Of a stretch of DNA of 54,710 nt, positions 4,174 through 51,280 are shown one piece after another; within the stretch, counting starts at the first letter, position 1; each line of letters opens with the position of its first letter. Source of the stretch: a virus. The notes under the pieces are model-generated. The model ran no database searches. It was given only the letters and a program-made list of their open reading frames with translations, and had not been told where the DNA came from. The stretch covers positions 1 to 54,710 of the IMG/VR virus record IMGVR_UViG_3300025117_000080. One strand, given 5' to 3'. The position numbers and the translations under genes are program-made.

Positions 4174-4473
4174 TCATTCGCCGCCCTCATAGTGGTATTC
4201 AACCCACCTGTTGAGACCGTTGCGGAATTGTTTGGCGACGTAAAGGTGCAGATTGATTGTGTCGCGTGCCTGGATTTCCGAAATCGGAGTGGCTTGTAGG
4301 CTTGGTATCTTGGCAGCGTAAAAAACCTCCTGGTCAGGATGGACCAATACGGTTTGACCGTCGCACGGTCCACCTGCCAGGCGGGTCTCATAAAAGCGGG
4401 GGCCTCCGACAAGCCCCGGGGACATCTGCCGGAGGCCCCCTTCCTGTGGGGTGTCTTGGTTGGTGGGGGTCAT
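4174..4473 (-). CDS. Conserved phage protein of unknown function (RLAGGPCDGQ type)
   Basis: 99 residues from the ATG at 4473, which overlaps the upstream stop as ATGA (4470-4473). A longer reading to 4509 exists but would run further into the upstream gene. The motif RLAGGPCDGQTV in the middle recurs in many small phage proteins with no known role. The C-terminus has a run of aromatic and charged residues. It belongs to the packaging operon, between a zinc-finger gene and the small terminase. Confidence 0.65.
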   Translation of the reverse strand: MTPTNQDTPQEGGLRQMSPGLVGGPRFYETRLAGGPCDGQTVLVHPDQEVFYAAKIPSLQATPISEIQARDTINLHLYVAKQFRNGLNRWVEYHYEGGE

Positions 4474-6547: not shown

Positions 6548-7657
6548 CTACGGCACCAAAGCCCGCTGTAAAATCATAAGCGCCTGCGCCTGAACCGTCC
6601 GAAAATCGGCCTTGGCCTGCTTTGCAAGTTCGGACATCAACTCCGGATAATCATCGAACCGTAACTCCAGGGACTTGGCCGAACGCTCCTTAAGCCCCAC
6701 CCGGTCTGTGGCCTGTATCCGGTAACATACTTTGCACAGGTGCATGTAGCCGTCCGGCGACATTTTGGACCTCATAAATTTTTCAATGGGCTGCGCTTCT
6801 CTCGCGTGTGCGCAACGCTCGCTCCTGCAAATCTTTTCCGTGATCTCCTGTTTCTGTTCCATGGTTTGCGCTTTCCCCTCCTGTTGTGGTTGCTCGATGG
6901 CCTCCTGCCATTCCTTGACAGGGTAAGATTTGACGGCGATGGCCAGCAGATCCCGCCGCTTCTGGTCGTATATTTTCTGTTTCCTGATCATGCAGACCTT
7001 GCAAAACCATGCTTTGCCATCAGCATTGTTCTTGTTGTTGTAAAAATTATCTAGCGGCTGCGGTGCTCCTTTGGCCTCACAATCTGGCTCAGGGCATATC
7101 TTTGTAGTCGCCGGTTCCGCTGCGGGCTGATCCGGTTCGATGCCGGCCGCCCGGTCCAGCCGTTCGCGCAGGTTCTTTTTGAGGCCGGCGAGCTTCTGCT
7201 TGCGTTCTTCGGCCATGTCGCGCTGGCAATCCTTGCAATATCCGCACAGGCCGTCTTTTCTGCTGCCCTTGTGAAAATTTTCGGCGGCCTGGGGCCGGCC
7301 TTCGTGCTTGCACTCTTTGCGGCTGCAAACCTTTCCGGCCGGCGCCGGTGATGGCTCTGTAATCTGACCGGGCTTCGCCATGGCCCTCTTGTCCCATTTC
7401 CTGCCGCCCACGCGCATCTGATACGCCTTGACTGCACCGGGAGAGACTTCTTTCTCAATCTCTTTACCCTGTTCGCAATCACGGCAGGCTGTGTCTCCGC
7501 TTCCTGGCTTGTTTCCTGATTTACCTACTATCCAATCCTGTACAGAGTTTTTGCGCCGGATTACACAGGCGGCTTTTTCCATGCGGCAACCAGACTTGTC
7601 GCACTTGAAAAATGTTTCGCTGCTGAGGATTGATTCCATTGCGGTTTCTGTGGTCAT
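6548..7657 (-). CDS. Multi-zinc-module protein with three tandem repeats
   Basis: 369 residues. Three repeats share the plan C-x4-C, about 24 residues with a conserved Phe, then C-x2-C: cysteines about 111/116/141/144, 188/193/219/222 and 277/282/308/311. A fourth, divergent Cys cluster lies near residues 19-61. Linkers are Pro/Glu/Lys-rich and the last 40 residues are helical. Single copies of this knuckle occur in endonuclease VII-like and other phage proteins, but no catalytic residues are visible here. Its start overlaps the resolvase stop (ATGA). A nucleic-acid scaffold role is a guess. Confidence 0.65.
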   Translation of the reverse strand: MTTETAMESILSSETFFKCDKSGCRMEKAACVIRRKNSVQDWIVGKSGNKPGSGDTACRDCEQGKEIEKEVSPGAVKAYQMRVGGRKWDKRAMAKPGQITEPSPAPAGKVCSRKECKHEGRPQAAENFHKGSRKDGLCGYCKDCQRDMAEERKQKLAGLKKNLRERLDRAAGIEPDQPAAEPATTKICPEPDCEAKGAPQPLDNFYNNKNNADGKAWFCKVCMIRKQKIYDQKRRDLLAIAVKSYPVKEWQEAIEQPQQEGKAQTMEQKQEITEKICRSERCAHAREAQPIEKFMRSKMSPDGYMHLCKVCYRIQATDRVGLKERSAKSLELRFDDYPELMSELAKQAKADFRTVQAQALMILQRALVP

Positions 7658-8524: not shown

Positions 8525-8591
8525 GGTCCGTTCTCCTTTAAGGCTCGAAATTCCTATCATCGCGGCCCCCGGCGAACCAGGGGCGGCACGG

Positions 8592-9506
8592 TTATCTCAC
8601 TTTGCAGACATCGGCCCAATCGGTGCCAGGGGCTTCCGGTATCTGAACGTCAACTATCCTATCGTGGTTTATGTGTAGCTCATGAGCTAACCTAAACGCG
8701 GCTTTCTGGCCGGTGAAGGTAAAGTCATTGTCTCCAAATATAACGATTTTCCTTGCTTCCTCTGGTGGTTTGAACGACTCAAGCCCTGTCGATGAAATGC
8801 AGGCCCATGTTGGAATATCGAAAATCTGAGTGGCGGCAATCGCGGTTTCTATTCCTTCCGCAACCCCCAAAACTTCCTTGTGGGAAAACAATCTTACAGC
8901 GGACCCAGCCATGGTCCCGGTATGCGGCATGAGCTTCTTTGGGCTTTCGATCTCTGCCTTTTTGCCGTCTTGTAGGTAAGTCCTGTGGATAGTAACCGGC
9001 TTGCCATCAGGTCCGGTGACCCTGGCTACCATGGCGTGCATTTTGGTCTTGGTTTCTTTTTCCCAACAGGCCGGGCAAAAGCGTACATCTTTGGGGGTTA
9101 ATGATAGGCCGCGAGAATGAAGGTATTTTGATGCTGGATCGGAGCCGGTAAGAGGTGTTGATGAGGTCCATAGTTCGTTAAGCCACTTCTTGATATTCGC
9201 TTCGCTGTGTTGGTCGCCCTGTGGCATCTTGAACTCTACCGTGCCGACTATCTCGTTGATTCTTTCCAGGGTTTCGGGGAAGGTCAGGCCGAGGGTCTTT
9301 TGAACCAGACTAAAGCCGTCGCCAGCTCCGCAACCGTTGCAATAATACATCCCCGAGCCTTGGTCATCGAACCGGAAACGGTCCTTCCCCCCGCACGATG
9401 GGCAGGGCGCATGCTTTTTTGGGTCTTCTGGAACCGTTATCCCAAGGTTTGACATTATTCCGTACCATTTTCCCTTTGCAGCTTCCTTGACAACCGATGC
9501 TTCCAT
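8592..9506 (-). CDS. DNA primase with zinc ribbon and Toprim domain
   Basis: 304 residues. The zinc ribbon has Cys35, Cys38, Cys56 and Cys59 with the family signature CPSCGGKDRFRF. A Toprim domain follows, with GVAEGIETAIAA holding the catalytic Glu and FGDND holding the metal-binding aspartates. This is the P4-type primase plan without a fused helicase; the helicase is the next gene upstream. It makes primers for phage DNA replication. Confidence 0.85.
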   Translation of the reverse strand: MEASVVKEAAKGKWYGIMSNLGITVPEDPKKHAPCPSCGGKDRFRFDDQGSGMYYCNGCGAGDGFSLVQKTLGLTFPETLERINEIVGTVEFKMPQGDQHSEANIKKWLNELWTSSTPLTGSDPASKYLHSRGLSLTPKDVRFCPACWEKETKTKMHAMVARVTGPDGKPVTIHRTYLQDGKKAEIESPKKLMPHTGTMAGSAVRLFSHKEVLGVAEGIETAIAATQIFDIPTWACISSTGLESFKPPEEARKIVIFGDNDFTFTGQKAAFRLAHELHINHDRIVDVQIPEAPGTDWADVCKVR

Positions 9507-11145: not shown

Positions 11146-11484
11146 TGCATTTTTTGTAGATGCCCTTTGTGTCCATTCATCCCTATATTTCACCATGTTA
11201 GGAATGTTGATCGTCAAATCGTCGCCGCCATTTTCAAGTATAATAAGTTTTTTTTCTTCCAAAATTCCGGCGAATTTCCTGAACTTTTTGGCAGAAATTC
11301 CGGCAAATTTTCCCCAAGTTTTGTCAGAATAACGGCAAAAAGTCTTAGGGCTTGAGTCCATTTGCTTCCCGATTATTTCCAAAAGTCGCCACCAAAAACC
11401 GTAAATTTCAAGGCCGTGGTCTGCCGTTATTGCGGCGATTCGTTCGTCTTCCCATGAGCATGTCAGATGCTTAAGCCAGCGCAT
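11131..11484 (-). CDS. Replication initiator-like N-terminal domain protein
   Basis: 117 residues. The start MRWLKHLTCSWEDERI and the GLEIYGFWWRLLEIIGK helix match the winged-helix N-terminal domain found in phage replication proteins of the DnaD/Lin1244-like type. The usual C-terminal part is missing and the frame ends inside the 11-bp repeats, so the gene may be truncated or a single-domain form. It probably marks or binds the origin for the following helicase and primase. Confidence 0.55.
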   Translation of the reverse strand: MRWLKHLTCSWEDERIAAITADHGLEIYGFWWRLLEIIGKQMDSSPKTFCRYSDKTWGKFAGISAKKFRKFAGILEEKKLIILENGGDDLTINIPNMVKYRDEWTQRASTKNADTRE

Positions 11485-11767
11485 TAAGATCCCCGTTTGT
11501 TATTTTTACGCCTTTCATAGTGTTGCATTTAGTGCATAGGCATCTCAAATTCTCCTTTACGTTTGTTCCACCTGCGCACCTCGGGTAAATATGATCGATG
11601 CTTAAATAAACTCCATCAATATCGGTGTGATGGGTGTATGTAACCGATCCAGAAGGGCCTTTATTCCTGACGGCATGTCCTATAACTCCGCAGATTTGGC
11701 ACGTGTATTTGTCACGCTCGAATATCGACCTGCGATATTTTCCATAAACTCCATTGTTAGACGACAT
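11471..11767 (-). CDS. HNH endonuclease, free-standing
   Basis: 98 residues. The core is FERDKYTCQICG, then SIDHIYPRCAGGTN and NLRCLCTKCNTMKG: a canonical HNH fold with two CxxC knuckles and the catalytic His in the DHI strand. Short single-domain HNH proteins are common selfish genes in phages or act at packaging. It begins directly after the first copy of the structured leader element and overlaps the next gene by 14 bases. Confidence 0.8.
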   Translation of the reverse strand: MSSNNGVYGKYRRSIFERDKYTCQICGVIGHAVRNKGPSGSVTYTHHTDIDGVYLSIDHIYPRCAGGTNVKENLRCLCTKCNTMKGVKITNGDLNALA

Positions 11768-11936
11768 TGTTTGCCCTCAAAAACACAAAAAGCCACACAA
11801 GCCGGTGGCTGCTGACCATGGAGTATGGTAGGCGGGACTTTCACCCGTACCCCGGCTTGTGTAGCGTTTTCTATCTTCGATTAGCATTTGAGCACTCCAT
11901 GTCAGCGTTTCAAACATGTCACGCAATGAACTTAAA
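11768..11936 (-). promoter_or_regulatory. Structured leader element, copy 1
   Basis: Read leftward: a conserved upstream box (11936-11917), a box AATGCT-x-x-TCGAAGAT (about 11888-11873), then a 14-bp stem (11852-11865 with 11792-11805, one G-U pair) capped by two smaller hairpins, then TTTTTGTGTTTTTGAGGGC and the HNH start codon. Copy 2 (12818-13009) shares the boxes and tail but has different stem sequence. The stem plus T tract looks like an intrinsic terminator placed just before a gene. Confidence 0.6.
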
Positions 11937-11956
11937 GTCAATAGTTTGCCGCAAGA

Positions 11957-12115
11957 TTAAACCCTCCCCGTAATCTCCAACGCCCGCCGCTTCAAAGCCC
12001 CCTGGACCTCCTCGTAAGCCTCGCGGTACTTTTCATCGTCGCGGTACTTGCGGAGCCTGCGGGCCTGCTTGCTTAGGTTTTGGAGGCGTTTTTTGGTTTC
12101 GGTATCAATCATCAT
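11957..12115 (-). CDS. Small basic coiled-coil-like protein
   Basis: 52 residues from the first of two adjacent ATG codons; overlaps the stop of the upstream zinc-finger gene. Very rich in Lys/Arg/Glu (ETKKRLQNLSKQARRLRKY), predicted almost wholly helical. No family recognised. The longer frame to 12250 is out of context with the overlapping gene. Confidence 0.5.
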   Translation of the reverse strand: MMIDTETKKRLQNLSKQARRLRKYRDDEKYREAYEEVQGALKRRALEITGRV

Positions 12116-12368
12116 CGAAGCACCCGTTTCCTTTTTCCCAACAAAGACAGTTTTCGATTCTTTTGGTAAAAGGCACGCAAACATGGCGCAAGCATCGCCA
12201 TTCATTATTGTCTGGGCTAAGCCGCCTAACCAAGTTGTTGCACGTTCCACAAGACTTGCGCTCAGGATTCAACCAGCATTTCTTTTCGTGGTTACGAGCG
12301 CCGCTTCTGGAAAGAAAAAACCGTGGCCTTTTGCAATGTTCGCACTTATAGGCTGTTACTTTTTGCAT
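12105..12368 (-). CDS. Small zinc-finger protein
   Basis: 87 residues from the ATG at 12368. A first finger has CEHC then a His-x4-Cys spacing (C2HC-like, HEKKC), followed by CGTC and CLRH and CLCW pairs. This recalls short phage proteins with two or more treble-clef knuckles. A possible 24-residue ORF precedes it in the gap 12369-12430. Function unknown. Confidence 0.55.
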   Translation of the reverse strand: MQKVTAYKCEHCKRPRFFLSRSGARNHEKKCWLNPERKSCGTCNNLVRRLSPDNNEWRCLRHVCVPFTKRIENCLCWEKGNGCFDDD

Positions 12369-12430
12369 GGCGAGACCCTCTCGCGTTGTCCAGATGGCGC
12401 TTTTTGGTTTCTGGGTCCATGGGTTGCTCC

Positions 12431-12817
12431 CTAAAAAGTGCACATTGGTCTGTATGGTCCACAATGCGGCAGCACCTTAGCTAGTCCATCTTTAACCGCA
12501 TGTTGAAGCAAGATTAGCTTGGCGTGGGATGCGCACATATTCACGCCGTCAACCAATACCGTAGCCCTAAGTTTGCATCGCCAACCTTCAGCCTCTCGAA
12601 GTAGTTTTTCACGCTTCAGGTAGTGAGTATTTTTGCACGTGCACTCACAGCGGGCCGCGTTCGGCTTTTCTGATTTTGTTTTAGTGCTGACATAAAGGCT
12701 TGCGTGAAGGTGGCAATACTTGCGGCCGTCGATCTCTATCCTGGCTGTATTTTCGCATCTCGGGCGGTCAACCCAACCAAGGCTTGCTTCGCATCTGTGT
12801 GCGTTTTGCCAGTCCAT
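12431..12817 (-). CDS. Duplicated Cys/His metal-binding protein
   Basis: 128 residues. Two similar halves each carry an RC(E/K) start, a conserved hydrophobic IEIDG or VLVDG strand and a C-x2-H end (YCHLH, MCASH), separated by a basic linker with CECTC. The internal repeat suggests duplication of one small zinc module. Starts directly after copy 2 of the structured leader element. No named family. Confidence 0.55.
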   Translation of the reverse strand: MDWQNAHRCEASLGWVDRPRCENTARIEIDGRKYCHLHASLYVSTKTKSEKPNAARCECTCKNTHYLKREKLLREAEGWRCKLRATVLVDGVNMCASHAKLILLQHAVKDGLAKVLPHCGPYRPMCTF

Positions 12818-13009
12818 TGCTTAGCCCTCAAAAACTAAAAACTCCCTTGAAATGGACTTTGACCGGGGGATAAGTCCCGCCGCTGCGTTACCACAGCCGG
12901 AGTCCATTTCAAGAGAGTCTTTAATCTTCGAGAGCATTACAGACACCTTATCCTTTGTCAGTTTTTACTTTTCCCCAAAATGAACCATTTGTCAAGCACT
13001 GAACTTTAA
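12818..13009 (-). promoter_or_regulatory. Structured leader element, copy 2
   Basis: Read leftward: upstream box (13009-12990), the AATGCT-x-TCGAAGAT box (about 12938-12923), an 18-bp stem (12901-12918 with 12841-12858, one G-U pair), two apical hairpins, one with a GUAA tetraloop on a CUGUG/CGCAG stem, then TTTTTAGTTTTTGAGGGC and the start codon at 12817. Boxes and tail match copy 1 (11768-11936); the stem sequence does not, yet pairing is kept. Confidence 0.6.
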
Positions 13010-13290: not shown

Positions 13291-13752
13291 CTACCCGAAC
13301 GCTAAAACCTTATCCACCAGGTCGTTGACTTCCTCGGCGCTCATCTTGTCCAGCACGTTGACCCGCTTCAGAATCACGTTCAGCACGGCGTTGTAGAGCT
13401 TTTCGAACTCGGTGTCGTCCATACTCGAAAAGCTGATTGATTTTGCTTCCGGCCTTGCGGTTCCGTCCATACGGATAACGATTTCATAATACCCGGCAAG
13501 TATGATCAAGTCCTTGCGGAAGCGGTCGAAGTTTTTCTCAGGGACACCGTACTTGCTGTCGATCGCTCCGGGCTCCCAATAATCGAAAGCCAGATTCAAC
13601 AAGGCGAACAGCTTTCTATGGAAACGAGGGTTCCGCATCTTCTTGAAATCGCCGTGCAAGACTTCACCGATCTTCAGCTTTGAATGAAGGGCTGCCGTTT
13701 CAGTATCAGCGGGGGCAAAGCCGTTTGGTAGTTTGGCAATCGATACGTTCAT
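13291..13752 (-). CDS. DUF1367-type phage recombination-region protein
   Basis: 153 residues. The string RNPRFHRKLFALLNLAF, followed by EKNFDRFRKDLIILAGYYE and EAKSISFSSMDDTEFEKLY, is the signature of DUF1367, a family found in lambdoid nin-like and recombination regions. Biochemical role not established to my knowledge. Its start overlaps the preceding zinc-ribbon gene. Confidence 0.75.
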   Translation of the reverse strand: MNVSIAKLPNGFAPADTETAALHSKLKIGEVLHGDFKKMRNPRFHRKLFALLNLAFDYWEPGAIDSKYGVPEKNFDRFRKDLIILAGYYEIVIRMDGTARPEAKSISFSSMDDTEFEKLYNAVLNVILKRVNVLDKMSAEEVNDLVDKVLAFG

Positions 13753-13903
13753 CTCTTAATCCTCTTGCGACGGTCAAGACGCGCTCCCAGCACCGTGGCC
13801 CCATATGCCGTGTTACGCTCTGGTGATCTTTCAGGGGCCGGCCGCATAGGGCGCATGTGACCGGCTTGTTGGGGCTTTCGTGGAAGATTGGGAGTTGGTT
13901 CAT
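13706..13903 (-). CDS. Small zinc-ribbon protein (CxxC...GPxCW type)
   Basis: 65 residues from the ATG at 13903. CALCGRPLKD followed by HMGPRCWER is a short ribbon seen in phage proteins of the DUF6011 kind. I prefer 13903 to 13918 because GGAAAG and a CCCC stretch precede it, as in similar junctions at 8148 and 15974. Overlaps the DUF1367-type gene. Confidence 0.55.
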   Translation of the reverse strand: MNQLPIFHESPNKPVTCALCGRPLKDHQSVTRHMGPRCWERVLTVARGLRDERIDCQTTKRLCPR

Positions 13904-16858: not shown

Positions 16859-16893
16859 GGCTCGTAATCCCTATCATCTCCAACCCCAGGAAG

Positions 16894-16919
16894 GCGCGGG
16901 GCCGAACAGCACCCCGCGC
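16894..16919. other. Stable GC-rich intergenic hairpin
   Basis: GCGCGGGG (16894-16901) pairs with CCCCGCGC (16912-16919) around a 10-base loop. No T tract follows on either strand, so it is more likely an RNA stability or processing signal than a terminator. A comparable hairpin followed by the same GATGATAGG motif lies at 8540-8590. Confidence 0.5.
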
Positions 16920-16931
16920 TTGGGGTGGGGT

Positions 16932-17138
16932 TTAAGCGGCCTGGGAATTGGCCGCGGGGTTGGTTTTCAGCGCCCTGATCTGCTCGGCAAGTTCGATAAA
17001 ATGATCGGCGCCGTAGGCTATCGAATGGCCGCAAGACATGCGGTGGTTGTTTTCCGCTTCGTACCCCGCACGGATGGTTAGCAGGGCTTCGAGTTCGATG
17101 CGCTCATCGAGGTCGCTGTCTTGTTTTGCGGTGGTCAT
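16932..17138 (-). CDS. Small protein with CGH motif
   Basis: 68 residues, perfect AGGAGG ribosome site. An acidic helical N-terminus and an MSCGHSIAYG turn. A single CxH pair is not enough for a zinc site. Overlaps the upstream membrane-protein gene by ATGA. Confidence 0.5.
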   Translation of the reverse strand: MTTAKQDSDLDERIELEALLTIRAGYEAENNHRMSCGHSIAYGADHFIELAEQIRALKTNPAANSQAA

Positions 17139-18928: not shown

Positions 18929-18981
18929 TTTTCACACCCCCCTGGTACTGTTTTGTTGTTCGTTTTTCTTGGGGGCTTCGA

Positions 18982-22493: not shown

Positions 22494-23501
22494 CTACCCA
22501 TTATATGCCTTGCCCTTGATTATCTTGAAGTTATGGACAAGGAATCCGTCCTCTTGAAGATTCTCAACCATTCCAAAGCCGTGGTTCCACTTATTGATTG
22601 GGGCATAGTCTGGATGCAGATCGCACGCGCAACCGATGGACCAAGTTCCAATGGTCTTGCCGTCCATGTCTGTTTCTGAATGCCCTGACGTTCTGTGCCA
22701 ATGGGCGCACATGCAATGCGCCTTTCCTCTGTTATAGACCCCTCTTGCCGGGTTTACTGGGTCGGAGAACATCCTTCCGAACTCATGCCCATGGATAAGG
22801 TTTAAGCTGTCTATTTTTATTATTCTGCGCTCTTGGATTAATTCGATGTCGTGCTTTTTGAAGTGTAAGAAGTTTTCATAGTTGAAGTCCGGGACTTCAA
22901 GCAACTCTGGAGCTTTTACCCATAACCACCTTTCGTATCGTTCGTCGTGATTGCCTTGCTTGACTCTTATTTTTATTCCGCTAAACCCTGCCCTTATTGA
23001 TTCAAGAATTGACCTTGCAGCCTGTATCTCCCCCCACAAGTCCCGCTTGCGTGGGTCTGTTTCCCATCGGCTTGAGGCATAAAAATCAACAAAATCTCCA
23101 AGGATAAGTATGCCGTCAACGCCTTGCTTGTATCCGTACTCAAGGGCTACCGTTAGAGCTTCTTTGCTGTGGTATGGGGCGTGGATATCACCTATTATGA
23201 GCGTTTTTGATTCTGTGAGATTGATCGGAAGCCATTCGTCAAAATGCCGTATGCCCTCTGGCATTGATTCAAATGGATTTGTTCTACCTGTATCCTTAAA
23301 AAACTCTTCTGAAGCTATATTTTTTTTTAGCGCTGACCCTCTTTGACCTCTTAAATATCTTATAATTTGGCGTACATTTTCTATATTAGAAAACGCCGAT
23401 GGTTCTTTTTTATAAATTAGTTTTGATAGTGTGAGGGAAGGGGTGTCTGGGTAAAGTTTAAGATACCCCCTAACGATTTCATTTTTTACTGTGGCAGGCA
23501 C
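22494..23501 (-). CDS. Calcineurin-like metallophosphoesterase
   Basis: 335 residues. Metal-binding motifs in order: GDIHAPYH, GDFVD, GNHDERYERW, HGHEFGR and HWHR. An N-terminal helical part of about 100 residues precedes the catalytic domain. GTG at 23501 is chosen because GGAAGG lies six bases upstream and the gap to the previous stop is then 23 bases. The substrate is unknown; phage members include nucleotide phosphatases and nucleases. Confidence 0.8.
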   Translation of the reverse strand: MPATVKNEIVRGYLKLYPDTPSLTLSKLIYKKEPSAFSNIENVRQIIRYLRGQRGSALKKNIASEEFFKDTGRTNPFESMPEGIRHFDEWLPINLTESKTLIIGDIHAPYHSKEALTVALEYGYKQGVDGILILGDFVDFYASSRWETDPRKRDLWGEIQAARSILESIRAGFSGIKIRVKQGNHDERYERWLWVKAPELLEVPDFNYENFLHFKKHDIELIQERRIIKIDSLNLIHGHEFGRMFSDPVNPARGVYNRGKAHCMCAHWHRTSGHSETDMDGKTIGTWSIGCACDLHPDYAPINKWNHGFGMVENLQEDGFLVHNFKIIKGKAYNG

Positions 23502-36275: not shown

Positions 36276-39200
36276 CTATTCCCTTGAGTTTTCAGCCGCA
36301 ACCGTACCGACTATCGCCGCCGCCCTTGAAACGCCTGTCTTGGCCTGCCGGTATGAATCGAGGTTTATGATTTTATCCTTCATCTGTGTGCTTAACTTAG
36401 CGGGCTGAATCTTTCCGCTTGCCGCCCTTATTAGGAAGTCAGCGTATTCAGGATCGAACATGGCTCTGGTTACGAGCTTATCGATTTCCTTTGTGCTGTG
36501 CTTCTTTAGGACCGCCGCAAGGCCCTTAACAACTGATGCCGTGCGTGACATATGGGTAAGTGTCGAAAGCCGCCCAAGGATGTTCTCTGCCGTATCTGAT
36601 CCGCCACCGATGGCGCTCCGTGTGTTCCTAGTTGAAATCTCATAGGCCCGTTGCATGGTTTTAAGGGCGTTGAGTTTTTCCGGCGTGCTCTTATATAAAA
36701 CGCTCATTGCCGGTTCGTACTTTTTCATTATTCTTGAGAAAGCCGCGTTTGATACCGTGGGATTGTTGGCAATATCCTTGGCGGTTGTTTCAACCGTTCG
36801 CATGACATGATCGGCAAAGGCGTTCTGGAGCCCTGCGGTAGCCGCTTTGTCACCTTTTACCATATTCATGAGGTCCATAGCCGCCTTGGTCGTATTGTTG
36901 CCTTTAATGGCGTTGGCTATAGCCTTATCAGCGTCCGCGTTCAGTATTCTTGAGGCTGCCGACTTTTCAAATTCTGCTGCTGACTTGGCTGCGCCGTCTG
37001 CAAGGGTTTGCGCCGTTTCCACGCCGCTGAAATCGAGGCCGTACTTTTCCAGGGATTGTTTATTTCTGTTGAGCCATGAGGTCAGTTTAGAAGTGACGAT
37101 ATCCCCGTTCTGGTCTGTCGCGGATTTCAATAGATCGTAGGCGTAATGGCCTTTCATGATTCCGCTGGCTTTTTCTTGGCCTACTGCCCTGATTAGATCC
37201 TCTGCGCCTGAAACCGTCGTGAATAGGCTTGGGATGTCTTCCGTTCTGGTGGCCGCCCCGGTAGCCTCCTTGCCTTTGGCGAGGGCCTTTCTGACCGCAC
37301 CCTTATCGAACTTTCCAAAGTATTCAGAAGAGGCGAAGTCGTTGAAAGCTTTCATGGAGCTGGCGACATCTTTTCCAGGTTCGACTGCGCTCAGAATTTC
37401 CCTCAGTTCCAAAATGCGCTTATCGGTTTCGCCGGCTGCGGCCGTGCCGGTGTTTTTCATGAGCGGATCTTTGCCAAAAACACTTTTATAGTCTTTGGAC
37501 AGTCTGGCCGCAAAGCTGGTTTCGTCTTCCCCGTATTGGCGCATCATGGTAAAGCCGTTTTTATCCTTGATGGCTTTTACCATGCCTTCGATATCTGGTA
37601 CTTGGGCGGCCTTGAGTTGGGCTGATCTTACCGTGGCCTTTTCAAGCTCATCGGCCAATACGTCAGTGTTGACGGGCTTCCCTTTGTATTCTCCGATCTT
37701 TCCGCTTCTGGCCATGCTTGATAATTCGGCAAGGTCTCTTTCGAGCGCGTCTCTTACGGCCGTAAGTGCTTCGCCAACTGACTTGTTACCGCCAGGGGCG
37801 AACGCTTTGGATATTTCGTCGTTCAGTGTTCGCCGGATGCCCATGGCTGTGAATGTGGTATTGCCTCGGTCGTCAAGAATCCTTTCGATCTTATTTTCTG
37901 TTTTGAATATTGCAGATACTTGGTCATCGGAAAGTTTCTTGTTTGCTCTGGCCTCGCTTATGGACTTGCGGACATTGCCGAAGGTCATGGGGTAATCAGG
38001 GATTGAGGACTCAAGCTGGTTCAATGTAGCTTGAACGGGCTTTTTGGCTGAACGGATAGCGTCAACGGCTTCTTCCCCTACCGCTTGGGGTGGGGCCGGT
38101 CCCATGTTATCGACCATCGGTCTGACCGCGCCTCTTTTGCTTGACGCATCCCTTTCAATTCTTGTCTTCTGAGTGTCGAGCGAACTGATTAAGTCGTCAA
38201 TGTTTCCTTGGCCGGCAAAGTGCTTGTCATAGTGCGCCCGTAGCGCTTCGTTGTTGGCTGCAATCTGTTCGGCGTTCTGCGTTGCAGCGTCGGTCGCTCT
38301 GATTTGTGATCGCTCAAGCTTGACCATGGCAGGATCGCCGGTTCTCTGCCCAAGGGTGAATTTCAAGCCGGGGATTTCTTTTTCGATCCTGGCGGCTTCT
38401 TCAGCGTTTCGAGCGTAAATTGTTCCTTCGGATGTGTTGGCCCTGAGAATGTTACCGGCTTGTTTTTCAAACTCTTTTTTGGAGACAAGACCGGACAGGC
38501 CGCCCGTTGCCTTCTTAAAGATCACCTTGCCGCCTCGGAATACCGGGACCAGGGCCGCGCCTATTGCCGCGCCTCCAACCTCAAGGGCTGCGCCTGTCGC
38601 AAAATCCTTTCCGGCTTCGGTGAAAGATTCGGCAGGGCTTGAATATTCCTTTTTAACTCCTGCGTACATATCAAGGGCATCTGCAAGACCCTTTCCGGCG
38701 ACGTATCCGGCCGCGCCTGTTGCGACAGCGCCAGGCCCGCTGGGGGCTCCAACCATTGCGCCAAGTGCTGCCCCTGTGCCTTCGAGCACTGGCCTGTAAA
38801 GCGGGGATGTGGCCTTGAGTCCCTTTTTCGTTGCGTCTTCGAGTTGCGCCGTGTCCTCAAGTCCTATTCCGGCGTAGTTTTCGAGGTCTGCGGGGTTTAG
38901 GTCCGGTTCGGTCTGTTTTGCTGCCCTTAGATTTTTGTTGACCCATTCCTCTTGTTCTTTGGTGAAGTTTTTAGCACTTGGATCGCCTGACAATATCCTT
39001 GCCGCTATGGTTTCTTTAATGTCTTGATCGTTGTCGCTGTAGCCCTTAAATGATTCAAGTTGTTCAGGCGTTACTGAAAAATCGGGCCGAGGGCCACCGT
39101 TCCGCATGTAGGCACGCGCACGCTCATTAAGGGCTACCGCTTGCTTTTCTGGATAGGATAGCTTGCTGTACGGGTTTAGAATAAAAGCGCCGTCTTCGGT

Positions 39201-39530
39201 CGCCATGCCGCCTACGTCTGGTTTTGTTTTGAAATATTCAAGTTCCGAATCGTATGGCTTTCTTTCCTTGATGCCTGAGAGCGGATCGCCCTGCTGTGGC
39301 TGCTGGGGCTGCTGGGGTTGCCCTGGCATGTCAGGTTGCACGGCAGGGGCTTCAATAGCAGGCTGCGCTCCATATTTATTCCTGATTCCAGCAACAGCCG
39401 AAGCCCGTTCGGTTTCAGGCAACGCCGCAAATTCAGGATCGATTTTCATCAACACCTTGGCCATTTCAGCTTCAGGCAGGGCGTGAAATTCAGGGTCTTT
39501 GACAACTTCAAAAACTGATGGATAAGCCAT
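36276..39530 (-). CDS. Large ejection/internal virion protein (gp16-like)
   Basis: 1084 residues. Segments GGLSGLV and FTLGQRTGDPAMVKLERS, long helical stretches and a Gly/Ala-rich membrane-like part near 255-300 (GAALGAMVGAPSGPGAVATG) are typical of podoviral DNA-transfer proteins. A 30-residue cassette at about 361-391 (NTSEGTIYARNAEEAARIEK) also occurs in the 39531 gene. It is expected to leave the head with the DNA and help cross the cell envelope. The start abuts the previous stop. Confidence 0.65.
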   Translation of the reverse strand: MAYPSVFEVVKDPEFHALPEAEMAKVLMKIDPEFAALPETERASAVAGIRNKYGAQPAIEAPAVQPDMPGQPQQPQQPQQGDPLSGIKERKPYDSELEYFKTKPDVGGMATEDGAFILNPYSKLSYPEKQAVALNERARAYMRNGGPRPDFSVTPEQLESFKGYSDNDQDIKETIAARILSGDPSAKNFTKEQEEWVNKNLRAAKQTEPDLNPADLENYAGIGLEDTAQLEDATKKGLKATSPLYRPVLEGTGAALGAMVGAPSGPGAVATGAAGYVAGKGLADALDMYAGVKKEYSSPAESFTEAGKDFATGAALEVGGAAIGAALVPVFRGGKVIFKKATGGLSGLVSKKEFEKQAGNILRANTSEGTIYARNAEEAARIEKEIPGLKFTLGQRTGDPAMVKLERSQIRATDAATQNAEQIAANNEALRAHYDKHFAGQGNIDDLISSLDTQKTRIERDASSKRGAVRPMVDNMGPAPPQAVGEEAVDAIRSAKKPVQATLNQLESSIPDYPMTFGNVRKSISEARANKKLSDDQVSAIFKTENKIERILDDRGNTTFTAMGIRRTLNDEISKAFAPGGNKSVGEALTAVRDALERDLAELSSMARSGKIGEYKGKPVNTDVLADELEKATVRSAQLKAAQVPDIEGMVKAIKDKNGFTMMRQYGEDETSFAARLSKDYKSVFGKDPLMKNTGTAAAGETDKRILELREILSAVEPGKDVASSMKAFNDFASSEYFGKFDKGAVRKALAKGKEATGAATRTEDIPSLFTTVSGAEDLIRAVGQEKASGIMKGHYAYDLLKSATDQNGDIVTSKLTSWLNRNKQSLEKYGLDFSGVETAQTLADGAAKSAAEFEKSAASRILNADADKAIANAIKGNNTTKAAMDLMNMVKGDKAATAGLQNAFADHVMRTVETTAKDIANNPTVSNAAFSRIMKKYEPAMSVLYKSTPEKLNALKTMQRAYEISTRNTRSAIGGGSDTAENILGRLSTLTHMSRTASVVKGLAAVLKKHSTKEIDKLVTRAMFDPEYADFLIRAASGKIQPAKLSTQMKDKIINLDSYRQAKTGVSRAAAIVGTVAAENSRE
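38358..38447. repeat. 90-bp coding repeat, copy in the large ejection protein
   Basis: Direct repeat of 39930-40019 with scattered, mostly third-position differences. It codes a shared segment (EGTIYARNAEEAARIEK) in two adjacent virion proteins. Confidence 0.8.
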
Positions 39531-40742
39531 TTACTTGTCCTCGAATTTTTGGAGGTACTTCCCAGCGTCGCCGGGTTTGGCGTTGTATTTTTCGCCGCCC
39601 TTTGCCCCGCCCAATCGGACTATGTTTTCGGGAGCGTATCCGTATCGGTTTGAAAGGTCTGTGTAATAATCAACCTGCGAGTCGTAAACATCCTTTGAAA
39701 CCAAGAAGAAGTTTTTCGCCATGGTTGCGATAGCGTCACGGTCTTCTTGGGTTAGGCCAGCGCCACCTGTTCTAATCTTTTCGATCTTACCCTTGATGCG
39801 GTTTAGCACCGCAAGATCCCCGGGGGTTCTTGCGTATTCTGACTCCCTGACTACGGACGATGGGTCAAGCATCTTGTTCAGGATTGTGATAAGGGCTTGG
39901 TCTACGGCAACCAAGTTACCGCCTTTTGTAAATTTCAGGCCGGGGCGTTCCTTTTCGATCCGTGCGGCTTCTTCAGCGTTGCGAGCGTAGATAGTCCCTT
40001 CTGACGTATTGGCCTTAAGCTGTGTCTCTCCCATGGCCTTCTCAAGCCGTTTGAACTGAGAATCTATTTCAATGAAGTTTTTAACCTCTGGTGCTGCCGA
40101 GAACTCTTTTCTAAGCGACATTTCATCGCTTACCCTGCGGCGGTCGCCCATGACTACCACGTTGGGCGATTGGCCCTTGGGCTTGGTTTCTCTTGATCCA
40201 TCGGCGTAGATGTATTCAACAGAATTGCCAAGGTCAACGGTTCGCTCTATATTCTTGCCTTGCTTCTGCTGGCCCCGCGCAACCTCCCGGTTATTAGCGT
40301 CGAACCTGACGTCATTCTCTTTGAGGGTGTAGCCTTCACCTGCAACCTGTTGGCGAAGCGCGTTGAGTTGCATGCGGCCCTGCTCTATGGCCTGCGGGTC
40401 GAACCGCACAGGGGTTCTTTGAATGATCGTCTGGAAAAACTTATTTTGGCCAAGAGGGGTCTGTCCAAGCTGCTGAAGGAATCCCCGATAGGCTTGATGG
40501 CTTTGCTCGTCCTTGACTGATTCAAGGGCTCGCCCGATGGTTTCGGCCTGAATCCCGATAAGCTTGATCTCGTTGGCTTGATCGGCCTGCCCCATTTGTT
40601 TATCCTCCTGGGCCATGCGCCGATCATAAAGCGCGTTCTGCCGGTCGATTTGCTGCTGGCGTTGCCGGAAGTCTGCCGCATTTGAAAGCGCCTGCTGCCC
40701 CTGATAAAAGCCGCCCCAAGGATTTACAAAGCCGTCTGCCAT
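39531..40742 (-). CDS. Ejection-type virion protein (gp20/gp16 region)
   Basis: 403 residues. Gln-rich helical N-terminus (RQRQQQIDRQNALYDRR) as in phage ejection proteins, followed by a coiled region. It carries the shared cassette at about 241-271. The adjacent large protein (1084 residues) begins directly after it. Likely injected with the DNA. Assignment comes from composition and context. Confidence 0.6.
   Translation of the reverse strand: MADGFVNPWGGFYQGQQALSNAADFRQRQQQIDRQNALYDRRMAQEDKQMGQADQANEIKLIGIQAETIGRALESVKDEQSHQAYRGFLQQLGQTPLGQNKFFQTIIQRTPVRFDPQAIEQGRMQLNALRQQVAGEGYTLKENDVRFDANNREVARGQQKQGKNIERTVDLGNSVEYIYADGSRETKPKGQSPNVVVMGDRRRVSDEMSLRKEFSAAPEVKNFIEIDSQFKRLEKAMGETQLKANTSEGTIYARNAEEAARIEKERPGLKFTKGGNLVAVDQALITILNKMLDPSSVVRESEYARTPGDLAVLNRIKGKIEKIRTGGAGLTQEDRDAIATMAKNFFLVSKDVYDSQVDYYTDLSNRYGYAPENIVRLGGAKGGEKYNAKPGDAGKYLQKFEDK
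39930..40019. repeat. 90-bp coding repeat, copy in the 403-residue virion protein
   Basis: Partner of 38358-38447; reading frame and orientation are the same, so the peptide is conserved. Differences fall mostly at silent or conservative positions, pointing to an old duplication or gene conversion. Confidence 0.8.
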
Positions 40743-40746
40743 GGTC

Positions 40747-41739
40747 TTACCCTTTCAGTTTTTCTCCGTCAAGCCAGCCCTTCATAATGCCCTCATTGAT
40801 GATATTGGCCGTTACGATATTTTCTACCGCTCCGGTTTTGGCCTTGTAGAAGGGCGGGCAAGCAATATCAAAAAGATCCACATTGTAAACATCGTACCAA
40901 CTGACCAGCATGTAGTATATGCCACCGAGCTGCATGTTGAAAAAGCTTGTCTTGTTGGGTCGCCACCAGATAGGCTCGGCGCCGTGCTTTTTCATCCGGT
41001 TGACCATATCTGAAACGAATATCTTCTTGAGCGGCTTTTGTTCGGCCCAAAGGTTCGTCGCAGCCTTGATCCTTACCGCTTCGATGGCGTCTTTGTTGGC
41101 TTCGCAGTATGAAAGGATGCCGTCAATCTGGTCAAGATCGTCGATCACGAATAGGACCGACTCAAGTTTCAAGCCGCGTTGCCTGAAGGCTTCTACCGTT
41201 GCGTAGTCCGCGCCGTTTGATTCTTGATGCATGGACAGATTGATTGATACCGTGTTACCTACGGAAAGCATGGGGATCAGGGCGTCTAAGGTTTTCGCGT
41301 CAAGCCCGGTTCCGTTGGTCAAAAGTTCTACGGGGGCTATGTCTTTGACGGCCTTAACGATACCAACCAAGTCTTTTCTCAGTGTCGGTTCGCCACCCGT
41401 CAAGATGATAGGTGCCATTGGTGCATGAACTACGGCTTCTGATAGGATCGAATCTACTGAGCGGTCTTTGCTCGTCTGCTCAACTTCGTAGTAGCAATAC
41501 TTGCATTTTAGGTTGCATCGCTTTGTTACATCGAGAAAATAGCCTGGATAGAAAAAAGGTGCCCTTGCGTTTAGGCATTGGAGATAGAAACCAACATCGC
41601 CCTCTACCGATTCTGTAAAGTGGCCGTGTATGTCGCATCTCTTTTCCATAACCACAATACCGTTTAAAATCCCAACCTCTGCCGGTATCCGCTTGTAACA
41701 CTCAGGACAAAAAGAAACCGTCTTTCTAATTACCTGCAT
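40747..41739 (-). CDS. Radical SAM enzyme with N-terminal zinc site
   Basis: 330 residues. The cluster motif C-x3-C-x2-C is at Cys75, Cys79 and Cys82 (KRCNLKCKYCYYE), followed by TGGEPTLRKD, the SAM-binding GGE motif. An N-terminal knuckle with Cys11, Cys14, Cys35 and His38 resembles that of Tes-like enzymes that act on lipids. No C-terminal SPASM cysteines are seen. GGGGGG ribosome site. It lies between a GNAT and ejection genes, so it may modify a virion protein or glycan. Reaction unknown. Confidence 0.8.
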   Translation of the reverse strand: MQVIRKTVSFCPECYKRIPAEVGILNGIVVMEKRCDIHGHFTESVEGDVGFYLQCLNARAPFFYPGYFLDVTKRCNLKCKYCYYEVEQTSKDRSVDSILSEAVVHAPMAPIILTGGEPTLRKDLVGIVKAVKDIAPVELLTNGTGLDAKTLDALIPMLSVGNTVSINLSMHQESNGADYATVEAFRQRGLKLESVLFVIDDLDQIDGILSYCEANKDAIEAVRIKAATNLWAEQKPLKKIFVSDMVNRMKKHGAEPIWWRPNKTSFFNMQLGGIYYMLVSWYDVYNVDLFDIACPPFYKAKTGAVENIVTANIINEGIMKGWLDGEKLKG

Positions 41740-47726: not shown

Positions 47727-48464
47727 CTACCCCATAACGAACGGAAAGGTGTACGGGAATCCGGTGCTATCCGTAAAAAGCGACGTGCTGCCATACCCAC
47801 CACTGAACGGAAGGCCGGTCGCAACCGGAACGCGCTGCGCAATATTCCTTCGTGCGATTGACTGCCAAGCGCTGTTAGCGTCGGCCCACAGGCTTTGCTC
47901 GACTTGAGTTCCGTGCATCCTGGCGAGTTTCGCAGCAAGGAACAGTATCAGGGCGTCCTCGTATTCTGTCGGAAGGCTCAAGGTTGTTGCGAGCGATAGT
48001 GTACTGTGCAAGTCCTTGGCGCTTTCAAGATAGACGGTATAGACCGCATCTGGAACCGGGAAAAAGTAGATCACTCCCACAGGATAAACCGGGTCGTAAA
48101 ACAATAGGCTGGGACGATCTTGAAAAGTCTTGTCAGATATGGCGTTGTAACTCTTTTCGGCGGCGATCATCAGCGGGTAATCGTAGTTGTCGGAATCTCT
48201 GACAAAAGCGCTCTTGATGATCTTTGCACGTTCGGTTGATGCCGTGCCGGCTGATCCCATAGTGTACGAAGCTTGGCCTGCGGTTGTGGAGAATGATTCG
48301 CTGGTGGAGTAGGGGATAATAACTTCCTGTGTCGAAAGCCGACCGATGATCCGATTCAGGAACCGCAGGCCAAGCGTCGATTGATTACCGTCTGGACCGT
48401 CCACAGGGTCAACGACCTGGGATTCTATGTAGGCGTCTGTTACGATGGTTTGACCTGTCGCCAT
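47727..48464 (-). CDS. Tail accessory/head completion protein, P22 gp4-like
   Basis: 245 residues. LGLRFLNRIIGRLSTQE, TAGQASYTMG, the segment ALILFLAAKLARMHG and AWQSIARRN are typical of gp4-type adaptors that bind the portal and extend the tail. P22 gp4 is shorter (166). Four-base gap to the fibre gene. Confidence 0.7.
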   Translation of the reverse strand: MATGQTIVTDAYIESQVVDPVDGPDGNQSTLGLRFLNRIIGRLSTQEVIIPYSTSESFSTTAGQASYTMGSAGTASTERAKIIKSAFVRDSDNYDYPLMIAAEKSYNAISDKTFQDRPSLLFYDPVYPVGVIYFFPVPDAVYTVYLESAKDLHSTLSLATTLSLPTEYEDALILFLAAKLARMHGTQVEQSLWADANSAWQSIARRNIAQRVPVATGLPFSGGYGSTSLFTDSTGFPYTFPFVMG

Positions 48465-48755: not shown

Positions 48756-49091
48756 CTATTCCTCCTTCTTCGCCTCGACTAATTCATTGATTTTCGAGCG
48801 CATTTCTTTGACCGTCATTCCTTCGTCAAACTCAAGGCCATTGGCTCTTCCGAAGCCGATCAGCTCGGCGCTGTTCATGGTCGATGGATACTTTTTTGCC
48901 TTGGGCTTTACAGGTTCCACCTTTGCGGTTCCGGCTCCATCGTCCAGGGCTTCCCACATCCTGCGGGTGCGAGGATCTTCGAAGGCCGGCGAGTCGTACC
49001 AACCTTCCGGTATTACCGCGCCCTTCTCGAAAATCCGCGCCGCTTCGGTCTTGCTGTACATCCATCTACGGTTATCGTTGTAAGCGGTCAT
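48756..49091 (-). CDS. Small phage head/tail-region protein
   Basis: 111 residues. WMYSKTEAARIFEKGAVIPEGWYDSP is a motif seen in head-fibre or whisker-associated small proteins; the C-terminal helix resembles a HeH/SAP-type fold (NSAELIGFGRANGL; TVKEMRSKINEL). Its start overlaps the radical SAM stop. Confidence 0.55.
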   Translation of the reverse strand: MTAYNDNRRWMYSKTEAARIFEKGAVIPEGWYDSPAFEDPRTRRMWEALDDGAGTAKVEPVKPKAKKYPSTMNSAELIGFGRANGLEFDEGMTVKEMRSKINELVEAKKEE

Positions 49092-50365
49092 TATGCAGCC
49101 TTTCTATGCCCGCACATGAGGCTGTGCAGGTAGTCGTAATTAACCCCCTTGATCGTCGGCAGAAAGCGGCCTGTGCGCTCAATGGTGCGCTCCTTGGTCT
49201 GAGGAAGGATTAAGCCTCTTTGTTCACAAAAGTCATAAATGCCGGTACCGGGGATCGGCGTAAAATAGAACGGACTCGCGTGTTCCGGCTGGATCTCGTC
49301 TATCATGCGGGCCGTGGCCAAAGCCTCATCTTCTGTCTCGGTCGGCAGGCCATACATGAAAGTTCCGAAAACCTTTATCCCGTTAGCCTTGCAGATTATT
49401 GCGGCCTCGATGTTCTGATCTACGGTGGTGCCCTTTTTGATGAGGTCCAGAATCCTTTGGCTACCGCTTTCAAGGCCGATCACGAACCATGTAACGCCGA
49501 TGCTTGCCAAACGTTCGATCATGCCCGGGTTGCGACAAATGATGTCGGCTCGGCTACAAGCGACTATCGGAGCGCCGATCTTGGCTTGCTCATACAGGTC
49601 GCAAAACTCTTGAATCCACTTTGTTTTGAACGTGAAAGTATCGTCCCAGAAGGTGATGCTCTTGTAATGGAACCGCCCTTTAAGATAGGCCAGTTCAGCC
49701 ACTACGTTTTCGGGGCTTCGCAGCCGGTAGGGATTGCCAAAAACAGCGTTTTCGGCAGGCTGGCAGTATTGGCAACGGTACGGGCAACCTCGGCCAGCAA
49801 GCATGGTGATCGAAGGAAGCTCTTGATCCGGCGTGAAGTTACAGGCCAACTCCCGCTTGTAATCGAACAATTCGCGGTCCACCCATGGGATGGAATCAAG
49901 GTCCGGTTTGGCGCCACGGTATATTTTCGGCAGTTCTTGGCCGGCCTCGATCATCTTGAGCAGATCGACAAAGGCAATCTCGCCCTCTCCCTGGACTACA
50001 GAATCAATCGCGGAAAAGTCGTATTGTCCCGGGAAGATACTTGGATGGATGCCTCCCACGATCACCTTGCAGGCCGGAAGTGTACGCTTTATGACCAGCA
50101 CGGCCCGCATCGCGTGCCAATGGTCCACGGCTGAAACAGACAGGCCGTAAACATCCGATGGCTTTTCTTTAATCAGTCTTTCGAAGTGATCCCACCCTGA
50201 AAGCTGTCTCAGGTCGATCAGGTCAACGTCGTAGCCTGCGGCTTTGGCCGATGAGCCCACGGAGGCAGCACCGTGACCGATCCATGACCCCTCGCGGTCA
50301 CCGTAGGGCCTGTTGGCATTCATGCCGGCTACACCTACATGGCAGAAGATTAGAGAGACGCGCAT
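49091..50365 (-). CDS. Cobalamin-binding-type radical SAM enzyme
   Basis: 424 residues. N-terminal Rossmann-like B12 domain (about 20-140) with GGIHPS and VVQGEGE, then the cluster motif GRGCPYRCQYCQP with Cys194, Cys198 and Cys201 and a TIM-barrel to the end. This is the plan of B12-radical SAM methyltransferases/ring enzymes (BchE/HpnR-like class). Overlaps the glycosyltransferase stop by 16 bases. An unusual cargo in a phage head region. Confidence 0.85.
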   Translation of the reverse strand: MRVSLIFCHVGVAGMNANRPYGDREGSWIGHGAASVGSSAKAAGYDVDLIDLRQLSGWDHFERLIKEKPSDVYGLSVSAVDHWHAMRAVLVIKRTLPACKVIVGGIHPSIFPGQYDFSAIDSVVQGEGEIAFVDLLKMIEAGQELPKIYRGAKPDLDSIPWVDRELFDYKRELACNFTPDQELPSITMLAGRGCPYRCQYCQPAENAVFGNPYRLRSPENVVAELAYLKGRFHYKSITFWDDTFTFKTKWIQEFCDLYEQAKIGAPIVACSRADIICRNPGMIERLASIGVTWFVIGLESGSQRILDLIKKGTTVDQNIEAAIICKANGIKVFGTFMYGLPTETEDEALATARMIDEIQPEHASPFYFTPIPGTGIYDFCEQRGLILPQTKERTIERTGRFLPTIKGVNYDYLHSLMCGHRKAA

Positions 50366-51219
50366 TGGCCCCCCTTGCCCAAGGCTGCGAGCATTGCCGC
50401 CGTTTCTGCTTCGGTTGATCCTACCGCTTTTTCGATTTCGCTTTCGGCTTTACACCTTAACAGAAAGTCGTGATAATTTCCCTCCCATGCCTTGATCCCG
50501 TAGTGCTGAATTGTAACGTTTGGCTCCAGCCAGACGATGCCGCCCATTTCCTTATAACGTTTCTGGAAATAGATGTCCTCCCCGATGCGCCCACCAGAAC
50601 CGCGAAGGCCCTTTTGCATCTTGTATGCCAGCTCGGCAAGTTCTTCCTTGTCCATAGCCTCAAGTTCTTCTTTGGTCTTGATCTTGTGCGGCTCAATGTT
50701 GCACTTGAATGCCTCAAGTATTTCTTCGCCGGTAGTTGGTTCTGTATAGGTATCAAGGTTCGGTCGGGTGCGTTCAAAAGCCTTTCTTGAATACATGATG
50801 AAACCACCAGGAATGCCCCACATATCAAGAAGCCTGGTTTCCCCGATCTCTTTTCCAAGAAAGGAGCCATCTTCGGACTTGTTAGGGATACAGCCAAAAA
50901 ATTCCCAGTTATTTTTGCAGGGGTAGGCAGCTCCGACCACTTCGGCTCCCATCATCGCGGCCTTGAGTATCCTACAAAAACCTTCAACGTCCCACGCTTC
51001 GTCTGAATCGATCATAAGCATATGTGAGGCGTCTGATTTTAAAAACCTGTGCACTAACGCATTTTTTGCCCTGTCTACATACGAATCCCCGCTCAATTCG
51101 TAGTAGTCGAATGGGAGTTGAAGTTCGTGCAGAACATTTATCGAGTTCACAAGGCTTGTGACATATGGTGAGTATGCCTTGACTTCATAGTAGCAACTTG
51201 CTATAACCAAAATGTCCAT
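50350..51219 (-). CDS. GT-A type glycosyltransferase
   Basis: 289 residues from ATG at 51219. Begins MDILVIASCYYEV; the metal-binding DxD lies in MLMIDSDEAWD (71-77). RAKNALVHRF and the variable C-terminal part with WLEPNVTIQHYG fit a family of phage and bacterial glycosyltransferases. It probably adds a sugar to a phage or host surface molecule. Divergent from the HNH gene at 51281 and coupled to the radical SAM gene. Confidence 0.75.
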   Translation of the reverse strand: MDILVIASCYYEVKAYSPYVTSLVNSINVLHELQLPFDYYELSGDSYVDRAKNALVHRFLKSDASHMLMIDSDEAWDVEGFCRILKAAMMGAEVVGAAYPCKNNWEFFGCIPNKSEDGSFLGKEIGETRLLDMWGIPGGFIMYSRKAFERTRPNLDTYTEPTTGEEILEAFKCNIEPHKIKTKEELEAMDKEELAELAYKMQKGLRGSGGRIGEDIYFQKRYKEMGGIVWLEPNVTIQHYGIKAWEGNYHDFLLRCKAESEIEKAVGSTEAETAAMLAALGKGGQCASL

Positions 51220-51280
51220 ACATCCGTGTTTTTTTTGTTCCACTGCTTTAAATCCCCCCAAAAAAGAAAGTAGGTGCTTT

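What the first reader, a model, noticed from the sequence alone, without database searches (positions are those of the whole stretch)
11768..13009. Two copies of a structured leader element with conserved flanks and covarying stems
The stretches 11768-11936 and 12818-13009 share, in the same order and orientation: an upstream box (TGTCAcGCAaTGAACTT-like on the plus strand, 11917-11936 and 12990-13009), the box ATCTTCGA-x-AGCATT, and the tail GCCCTCAAAAAC next to a start codon. Between the boxes the stem sequence is unrelated in the two copies yet stays paired: 14 bp in copy 1 and 18 bp in copy 2, each with one G-U pair on the RNA strand. Each stem carries two small apical hairpins and is followed by TTTTT-x(1-3)-GTTTTT and then directly by a gene. 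Sequence change with pairing kept is the mark of a selected RNA structure. The layout resembles an attenuator or riboswitch: a terminator-like stem with a sensing cap just before the ribosome site. It matches no RNA class I know. The core hairpin sequence of copy 2 (GGCGGGACTT...CCCC) reads like the reverse strand of that in copy 1, which may mean an inverted cap.
Basis: partly seen in the sequence, partly recalled or inferred. Interest (0 to 1): 0.78.

Follow-up and report, generated by a model that had tools for sequence, protein, structure and literature searches.

The report
Phage leader hairpins with overlapping ORFs
In front of two early genes of this phage lies a long RNA hairpin that looks like a transcription stop signal and is crossed by a tiny reading frame ending at the next gene; related phages keep the layout but swap the hairpin sequence, which suggests a translation-controlled on/off switch close to known attenuators.

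Summary
Both elements lie on the minus strand and contain the two longest hairpin stems found in the window's gene-start regions. Each sits between one early gene's stop and the next gene's start. No Rfam family matches, even at E 10. The 'covarying stems' claim needs correcting: the boxes are the base of the stem (29- and 35-nt arms), and the inner arms are unrelated sequence, not traceable compensatory changes. The inverted cap is real.

Relatives show what is kept. Two IMG/VR phages (L025, L069) carry an element at the same site. Between them, the unit from promoter to U-run is 97% identical although the gene before it is 69% and the gene after it is unrelated. A second site (L069, L072) keeps the upstream gene and promoter but has other hairpins.

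New finding: in every complete element with a U-run, a Shine-Dalgarno-preceded ATG opens a 31-38-codon ORF that crosses the hairpin and U-run and stops within 15 nt of the next gene's start. The best reading is a phage leader attenuator of pyrBI-like layout. A stand-alone terminated small RNA is the main rival. A ligand riboswitch is unlikely. Function is untested.

The parts
11913..11941 (-). Copy 1 promoter region: TTGACT (11941-11936), 17 nt, CATGTT; contains the upstream box 11917-11933
   Evidence: TTGACT-N17-GATAGT in the homologous stretch of L069; same stretch in L025. The window's own -10 is a poor match and the scan finds no promoter there, so inferred
11895..11898 (-). Copy 1 Shine-Dalgarno GGAG, 7 nt before the leader ORF ATG
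   Evidence: sequence
11777..11887 (-). Copy 1 leader ORF, 36 codons (MLIEDRKRYTSRGTGESPAYHTPWSAATGLCGFLCF), UGA fused to the SD of the next gene (UGAGG)
   Evidence: such an ORF arises in 0.4% of pairing-preserving shuffles
11777..11880 (-). Copy 1 hairpin: arms 11880-11852 and 11805-11777, cap 11851-11806 with GGG-UGAAAGU-CCC hairpin
11773..11791 (-). Copy 1 U-run UUUUUGUGUUUUU followed by GAGGG (SD of the next gene)
   Evidence: a terminator-like match ends here
11471..11767 (-). Gene headed by copy 1: 98-aa HNH endonuclease (PF14279/PF01844)
12972..13006 (-). Copy 2 promoter region: TTGACA (12995-12990) and spacer; -10 degenerate in the window
   Evidence: TTGACA-N18-TATGGT in L069 and in L072 by inspection; copy 2 and L072 share the -35 and spacer
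12946..12949 (-). Copy 2 Shine-Dalgarno AAGG, 8 nt before the leader ORF ATG
   Evidence: sequence
12821..12937 (-). Copy 2 leader ORF, 38 codons (MLSKIKDSLEMDSGCGNAAAGLIPRSKSISREFLVFEG), stop 3 nt before the next ATG
   Evidence: such an ORF arises in 0.56% of pairing-preserving shuffles
12824..12935 (-). Copy 2 hairpin: 35-nt arms 12935-12901 and 12858-12824, cap 12900-12859 (inverted relative to copy 1), with two apical hairpins
12825..12842 (-). Copy 2 U-run UUUUUAGUUUUU followed by GAGGG (SD of the next gene), paired in the predicted fold
12431..12817 (-). Gene headed by copy 2: 128-aa Cys-rich protein, no Pfam match

Best explanation
Each element is the leader of a small early sub-operon and works as a translation-coupled attenuator. 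A promoter just after the preceding gene starts the RNA. A Shine-Dalgarno and AUG at the foot of the hairpin start a 31-38-codon leader ORF that runs through the whole hairpin and its U-run and stops at the next gene's start. If the leader is not translated, or ribosomes lag, the hairpin forms, transcription ends at the U-run and (window copies) the next gene's Shine-Dalgarno is paired away. If ribosomes follow RNA polymerase closely, they keep the hairpin open; polymerase reads on, and the terminating ribosome lies beside the next start codon and can reinitiate. Pairing, open frame and spacing would matter rather than arm sequence, which would let hairpins be replaced between phages. Shown: hairpin, U-run, ORF, stop placement, conservation of the unit. 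Inferred: promoter use, termination, read-through, coupling. The signal that tips the switch is unknown.
For: Strong folding and the top stems in the window. Leader ORF with SD crossing the hairpin and stopping within 15 nt of the next start in copy 1, copy 2 and L025 (random 0.004, 0.0056, 0.056), and also in L069 after a different downstream gene. Exactly 120 nt from leader ATG to gene ATG in both window copies. Promoter-like sequences in L069. The promoter-to-U-run unit is 155/160 identical between L025 and L069, against 110/160 in the gene before it and nothing after it. The elements head genes of the replication block at one site (HNH/Lin1244-like/helicase or DnaB) and of a variable block at the other. 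Ribosomes are reported to suppress intrinsic terminators, pyrL/pyrBI included (PMC5021804).
Against: No transcript data. The window copies have poor -10 hexamers and the scan finds no promoter. In E. coli a terminator close to the start of an ORF was weakened only about 10% by translation (PMC4824070), and here the 3' arm ends 81-96 nt after the AUG. The ORF test was framed after seeing the sequences, and copies 1 and 2 share boxes, so they are not fully independent. The second element of L069 has a weak U-run and its ORF stops inside the hairpin. Near-perfect conservation of the hairpin between L025 and L069 despite swapped downstream genes suits a stand-alone RNA equally well.
Confidence: 0.42

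Rival explanations
1. A phage small-RNA gene: promoter plus a ~110-130-nt RNA ending at its own intrinsic terminator, placed in the gap between genes. The downstream gene is served by read-through or not at all, as in prophage IsrK, where short RNA and read-through mRNA coexist.
For: The conserved unit in L025 against L069 is exactly promoter to U-run; the downstream genes differ. IsrK of Gifsy-1 has the same order: promoter, terminated sRNA, short ORF, gene (PMC4825925).
Against: No antisense target stands out from shuffles, except one unexplained copy 2 match at 40061-40090, score 19 against null maxima of 15.5. An sRNA does not need an SD-preceded ORF through its terminator.
Confidence: 0.22
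2. Ordinary mosaic-phage packing: a tiny gene of 31-38 codons and/or a plain terminator at a recombination joint. The hairpin only stops read-through or marks a module boundary, without regulation.
For: Similarity between relatives breaks at these sites on alternate sides: window/L025 share the gene and promoter, then differ; L025/L069 share up to the U-run, then differ. Overlapping stop and start is normal in phage operons.
Against: Ordinary terminators of this phage group are compact (e.g. GGGGGCCTCCGGCAG at 4398-4440, conserved in relatives), unlike these 70-112-nt hairpins. Promoter-terminator-gene order makes no sense for a plain terminator. The peptides share no sequence and match no family.
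Confidence: 0.2
3. RNase III processing site: a long double-stranded hairpin cut to release the downstream mRNA (or to leave a nonstop leader message, as in arfA).
For: 27-35 bp stem, long enough for RNase III; in arfA a stem-loop inside the ORF is both terminator and RNase III site (PMC10107115).
Against: The U-run after the hairpin is not needed for RNase III; L069's second element has only a short stem.
Confidence: 0.1
4. A DNA-level element (cruciform, single-strand origin or recombination hairpin), with pairing acting in DNA.
For: The cap is inverted in copy 2; one site heads the replication genes.
Against: Directional promoter, SD, ORF and U-run all point to RNA; no GC-skew turning point at these sites.
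Confidence: 0.04

Closest known systems
pyrBI (pyrL) attenuator of E. coli
   Same: Promoter, leader ORF overlapping an intrinsic terminator before the first gene; close ribosome following prevents termination (PMC5021804; detailed layout from memory)
   Different: Phage genes, no uridine-rich pause stretch of the pyr type seen before the hairpin, much longer hairpin with a branched cap, no link to UTP
IsrK-orf45-anrP of prophage Gifsy-1
   Same: Prophage promoter, short terminated RNA, read-through into a short ORF translationally coupled to the next gene (PMC4825925)
   Different: There the ORF lies after the terminator and sRNA-mRNA pairing switches it; here the ORF crosses the hairpin and no pairing partner was found
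P1/P7 C4 and P4 CI immunity RNAs
   Same: Structured phage leader RNAs controlling downstream genes through termination
   Different: No Rfam match to C4 or any family; no complementary target site found
arfA mRNA hairpin
   Same: Terminator hairpin inside an ORF (PMC10107115)
   Different: arfA encodes a rescue factor; these peptides match no family

Membership tests
pyrBI-type (translation-coupled) attenuator | Leader ORF with SD overlapping an intrinsic-terminator hairpin and U-run upstream of the first gene | tested here: met
pyrBI-type (translation-coupled) attenuator | Promoter directly upstream | tested here: inconclusive
   good in L069, none found by the scan in the window
pyrBI-type (translation-coupled) attenuator | Uridine-rich pause stretch before the hairpin, UTP response | tested here: not met
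   no such stretch in the copy 1 or copy 2 leader; the UTP response itself could not be tested; so not filed as a pyrBI member
pyrBI-type (translation-coupled) attenuator | Termination in the absence of leader translation | not testable with these tools
   needs a reporter or RNA 3'-end mapping
Riboswitch (any Rfam class) | Match to a known class or a conserved aptamer cap | tested here: not met
   cap inverted or replaced
C4 antisense RNA / P4 CI | Covariance-model match and complementary target | tested here: not met
IsrK-type sRNA/mRNA | Short RNA ending at the terminator that pairs with its own read-through mRNA | tested here: inconclusive
   terminator-like hairpin present; no significant pairing partner

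The most novel reading that the evidence does not exclude
A family of phage leader attenuators in which only the layout is kept (promoter, SD and ORF across a long hairpin and U-run, stop at the next start), while hairpin arms and caps are replaced or inverted wholesale between sites and phages, so that one regulatory device is maintained without sequence homology.
Probability: 0.25. Interest if true: 0.65.

Novelty: new variant of a known kind. Interest (0 to 1): 0.45.

Why it matters
If the switch is real, it shows phages reusing one attenuation layout at several operon heads while the RNA sequence turns over completely, which homology-based RNA searches such as Rfam would miss. It also suggests a way to find more: look for SD-preceded ORFs that exactly span strong hairpins and end at the next gene's start.

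Tried and rejected
Exact pattern of both boxes in IMG/VR: no hit. Upstream-box pattern in IMG/VR: 36 stretches, by inspection only the already known L025/L024 carry the element. Phage and plasmid BLAST of region and elements: only short weak hits with E of 0.3 or more. Two genome-contig scans found no relatives, so the host is unknown. Rfam at E up to 10 on the window and L025 elements and up to 1 on L069/L072: nothing meaningful. Leader peptides as a protein family: none in Pfam or PHROGs, and the L025 peptide has no tblastn match in phage records. Antisense targets: nothing clear. Replication origin by GC skew: no turning point. Integron attC-like site: considered, rejected because the GTTRRRY/RYYYAAC boxes are absent by inspection. 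A covariance model was not built: three partial homologues are too few.

Full report
What is there. On the minus strand, the gaps between genes 12250-11957 and 11767-11471 (copy 1) and between genes 13256-13011 and 12817-12431 (copy 2) each hold an upstream box, a leader with a Shine-Dalgarno-like sequence, a very long hairpin, a U-run and the next gene's Shine-Dalgarno. The shared boxes occur exactly only there. Predicted folds are -67 and -78.5 kcal/mol, z -5.5 and -7.8. A scan for stems upstream of ORFs ranks these two first in the window, with arms of 35 and 29 nt. Rfam finds nothing.

AATGCT-x-TCGAAGAT and GTTTTTGAGGGC are the two sides of the stem's base, not separate boxes. The inner arms are unrelated in sequence, so the two copies show replacement with pairing kept; they do not provide countable compensatory changes. 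The copy 1 cap recurs in the sense orientation in L072 as GGGTGAAAGTCCCAACCCGCCTACC.

Relatives. The window is an IMG/VR virus record of 54,710 bases with integrase, ERF, YqaJ, helicase and primase genes. Two related contigs share the region: L025 (identical to L024 here) and L069, plus the fragment L072. At the copy 1 site, L025 and L069 carry an element with the same promoter region but another hairpin (18-bp core stem), before a Lin1244-like gene in L025 and before a short gene followed by DnaB in L069. From 20 nt upstream of the aligned promoter start to the U-run they agree at 155 of 160 aligned columns; the gene before agrees at 110 of 160 and the sequence after is unrelated. At the copy 2 site, L069 and L072 keep the upstream gene (72-75% protein identity) and a promoter-like TTGACA (L069: TTGACA-N18-TATGGT; L072 by inspection), followed by different leaders; the L069 one has a short stem with two apical hairpins.

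The leader ORF. In copy 1, copy 2, L025 and L069 (first site) an ATG at the foot of the hairpin, preceded at 7-8 nt by GGAG, AAGG or GAGG, opens 36, 38, 38 and 31 codons that cross the entire hairpin and the U-run and end between 10 nt before and 14 nt after the A of the next gene's ATG. In shuffles that keep the pairing, such an ORF appears in 0.4%, 0.56% and 5.6% of cases for copy 1, copy 2 and L025. The test was designed after seeing the sequences and copies 1 and 2 share boxes, so the joint figure should be read with caution. The peptides share no sequence and match no family. In copy 1 and L069 the stop is fused with the next Shine-Dalgarno (UGAGG). L069's second element has an SD-ATG ORF of 27 codons that stops inside the hairpin, and L072 could use a TTG at 7252 after GAGG.

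How it probably works. Promoter, leader ORF, terminator-like hairpin overlapping that ORF, then the gene: this is the order of a translation-coupled attenuator of the pyrBI kind, where close following by the ribosome prevents termination (PMC5021804). The alternative fate, a discrete terminated RNA, is also plausible and has a prophage precedent in IsrK (PMC4825925). One published measurement argues for caution: a terminator near the start of an ORF was weakened only about 10% by translation (PMC4824070), and here the 3' arm ends 81-96 nt after the AUG. No pausing signal was identified.

Status of each step. Shown from sequence: hairpin, U-run, ORF with SD, stop placement, exact 120-nt spacing in both window copies, conservation of the promoter-to-U-run unit, replacement and inversion of caps. 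Inferred: promoter activity, termination, read-through, reinitiation. Unknown: the signal, the host, and whether the short RNA acts in trans.

Verdict. Real and selected, not a riboswitch on present evidence, closest to translation-coupled leader attenuators but failing one pyrBI-specific feature. It is therefore filed as a new variant of a known kind with moderate interest.

Noticed in passing
48267-48379 (-): Near-perfect 18-bp inverted repeat (CGACGCTTGGCCTGCGGTT / AACCGCAGGCCAAGCTTCG, 75 nt apart) inside the 5' part of gene 47727-48464; the repeat is kept in the related contig holding L069 (G002 9265-9369).
   Followed up: no
4398-4440: Compact terminator-like hairpin GGGGGCCTCCGGCAG...TTGTCGGAGGCCCCC, nearly identical in both related phages (G001 18938-18980, G002 22790-22832).
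   Followed up: no
36276-39530 and 39531-40742: Two adjacent genes share a nearly identical stretch (LxANTSEGTIYARNAEEAARIEKExPGLKFT), suggesting a recent partial duplication.
   Followed up: no
40747-41739 and 49091-50365: Two radical-SAM-like proteins by motif (CNLKCKYC, CPYRCQYC) and a possible glycosyltransferase (50350-51261) lie among the structural genes; not tested against families.
   Followed up: no
16868-16935, 13744-13903, 8543-8621: Short islands of 86-98% DNA identity with related phages beside strongly diverged genes, as expected of recombination joints.
   Followed up: partly
40061-40090: 30-nt stretch inside gene 39531-40742 complementary to the copy 2 3' arm, score 19 against shuffle maxima of 15.5; may be chance.
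   Followed up: no
L069:13910-16108: 732-aa protein after the second element, methyltransferase-like by eye (TCPPYY), no Pfam match.
   Followed up: no
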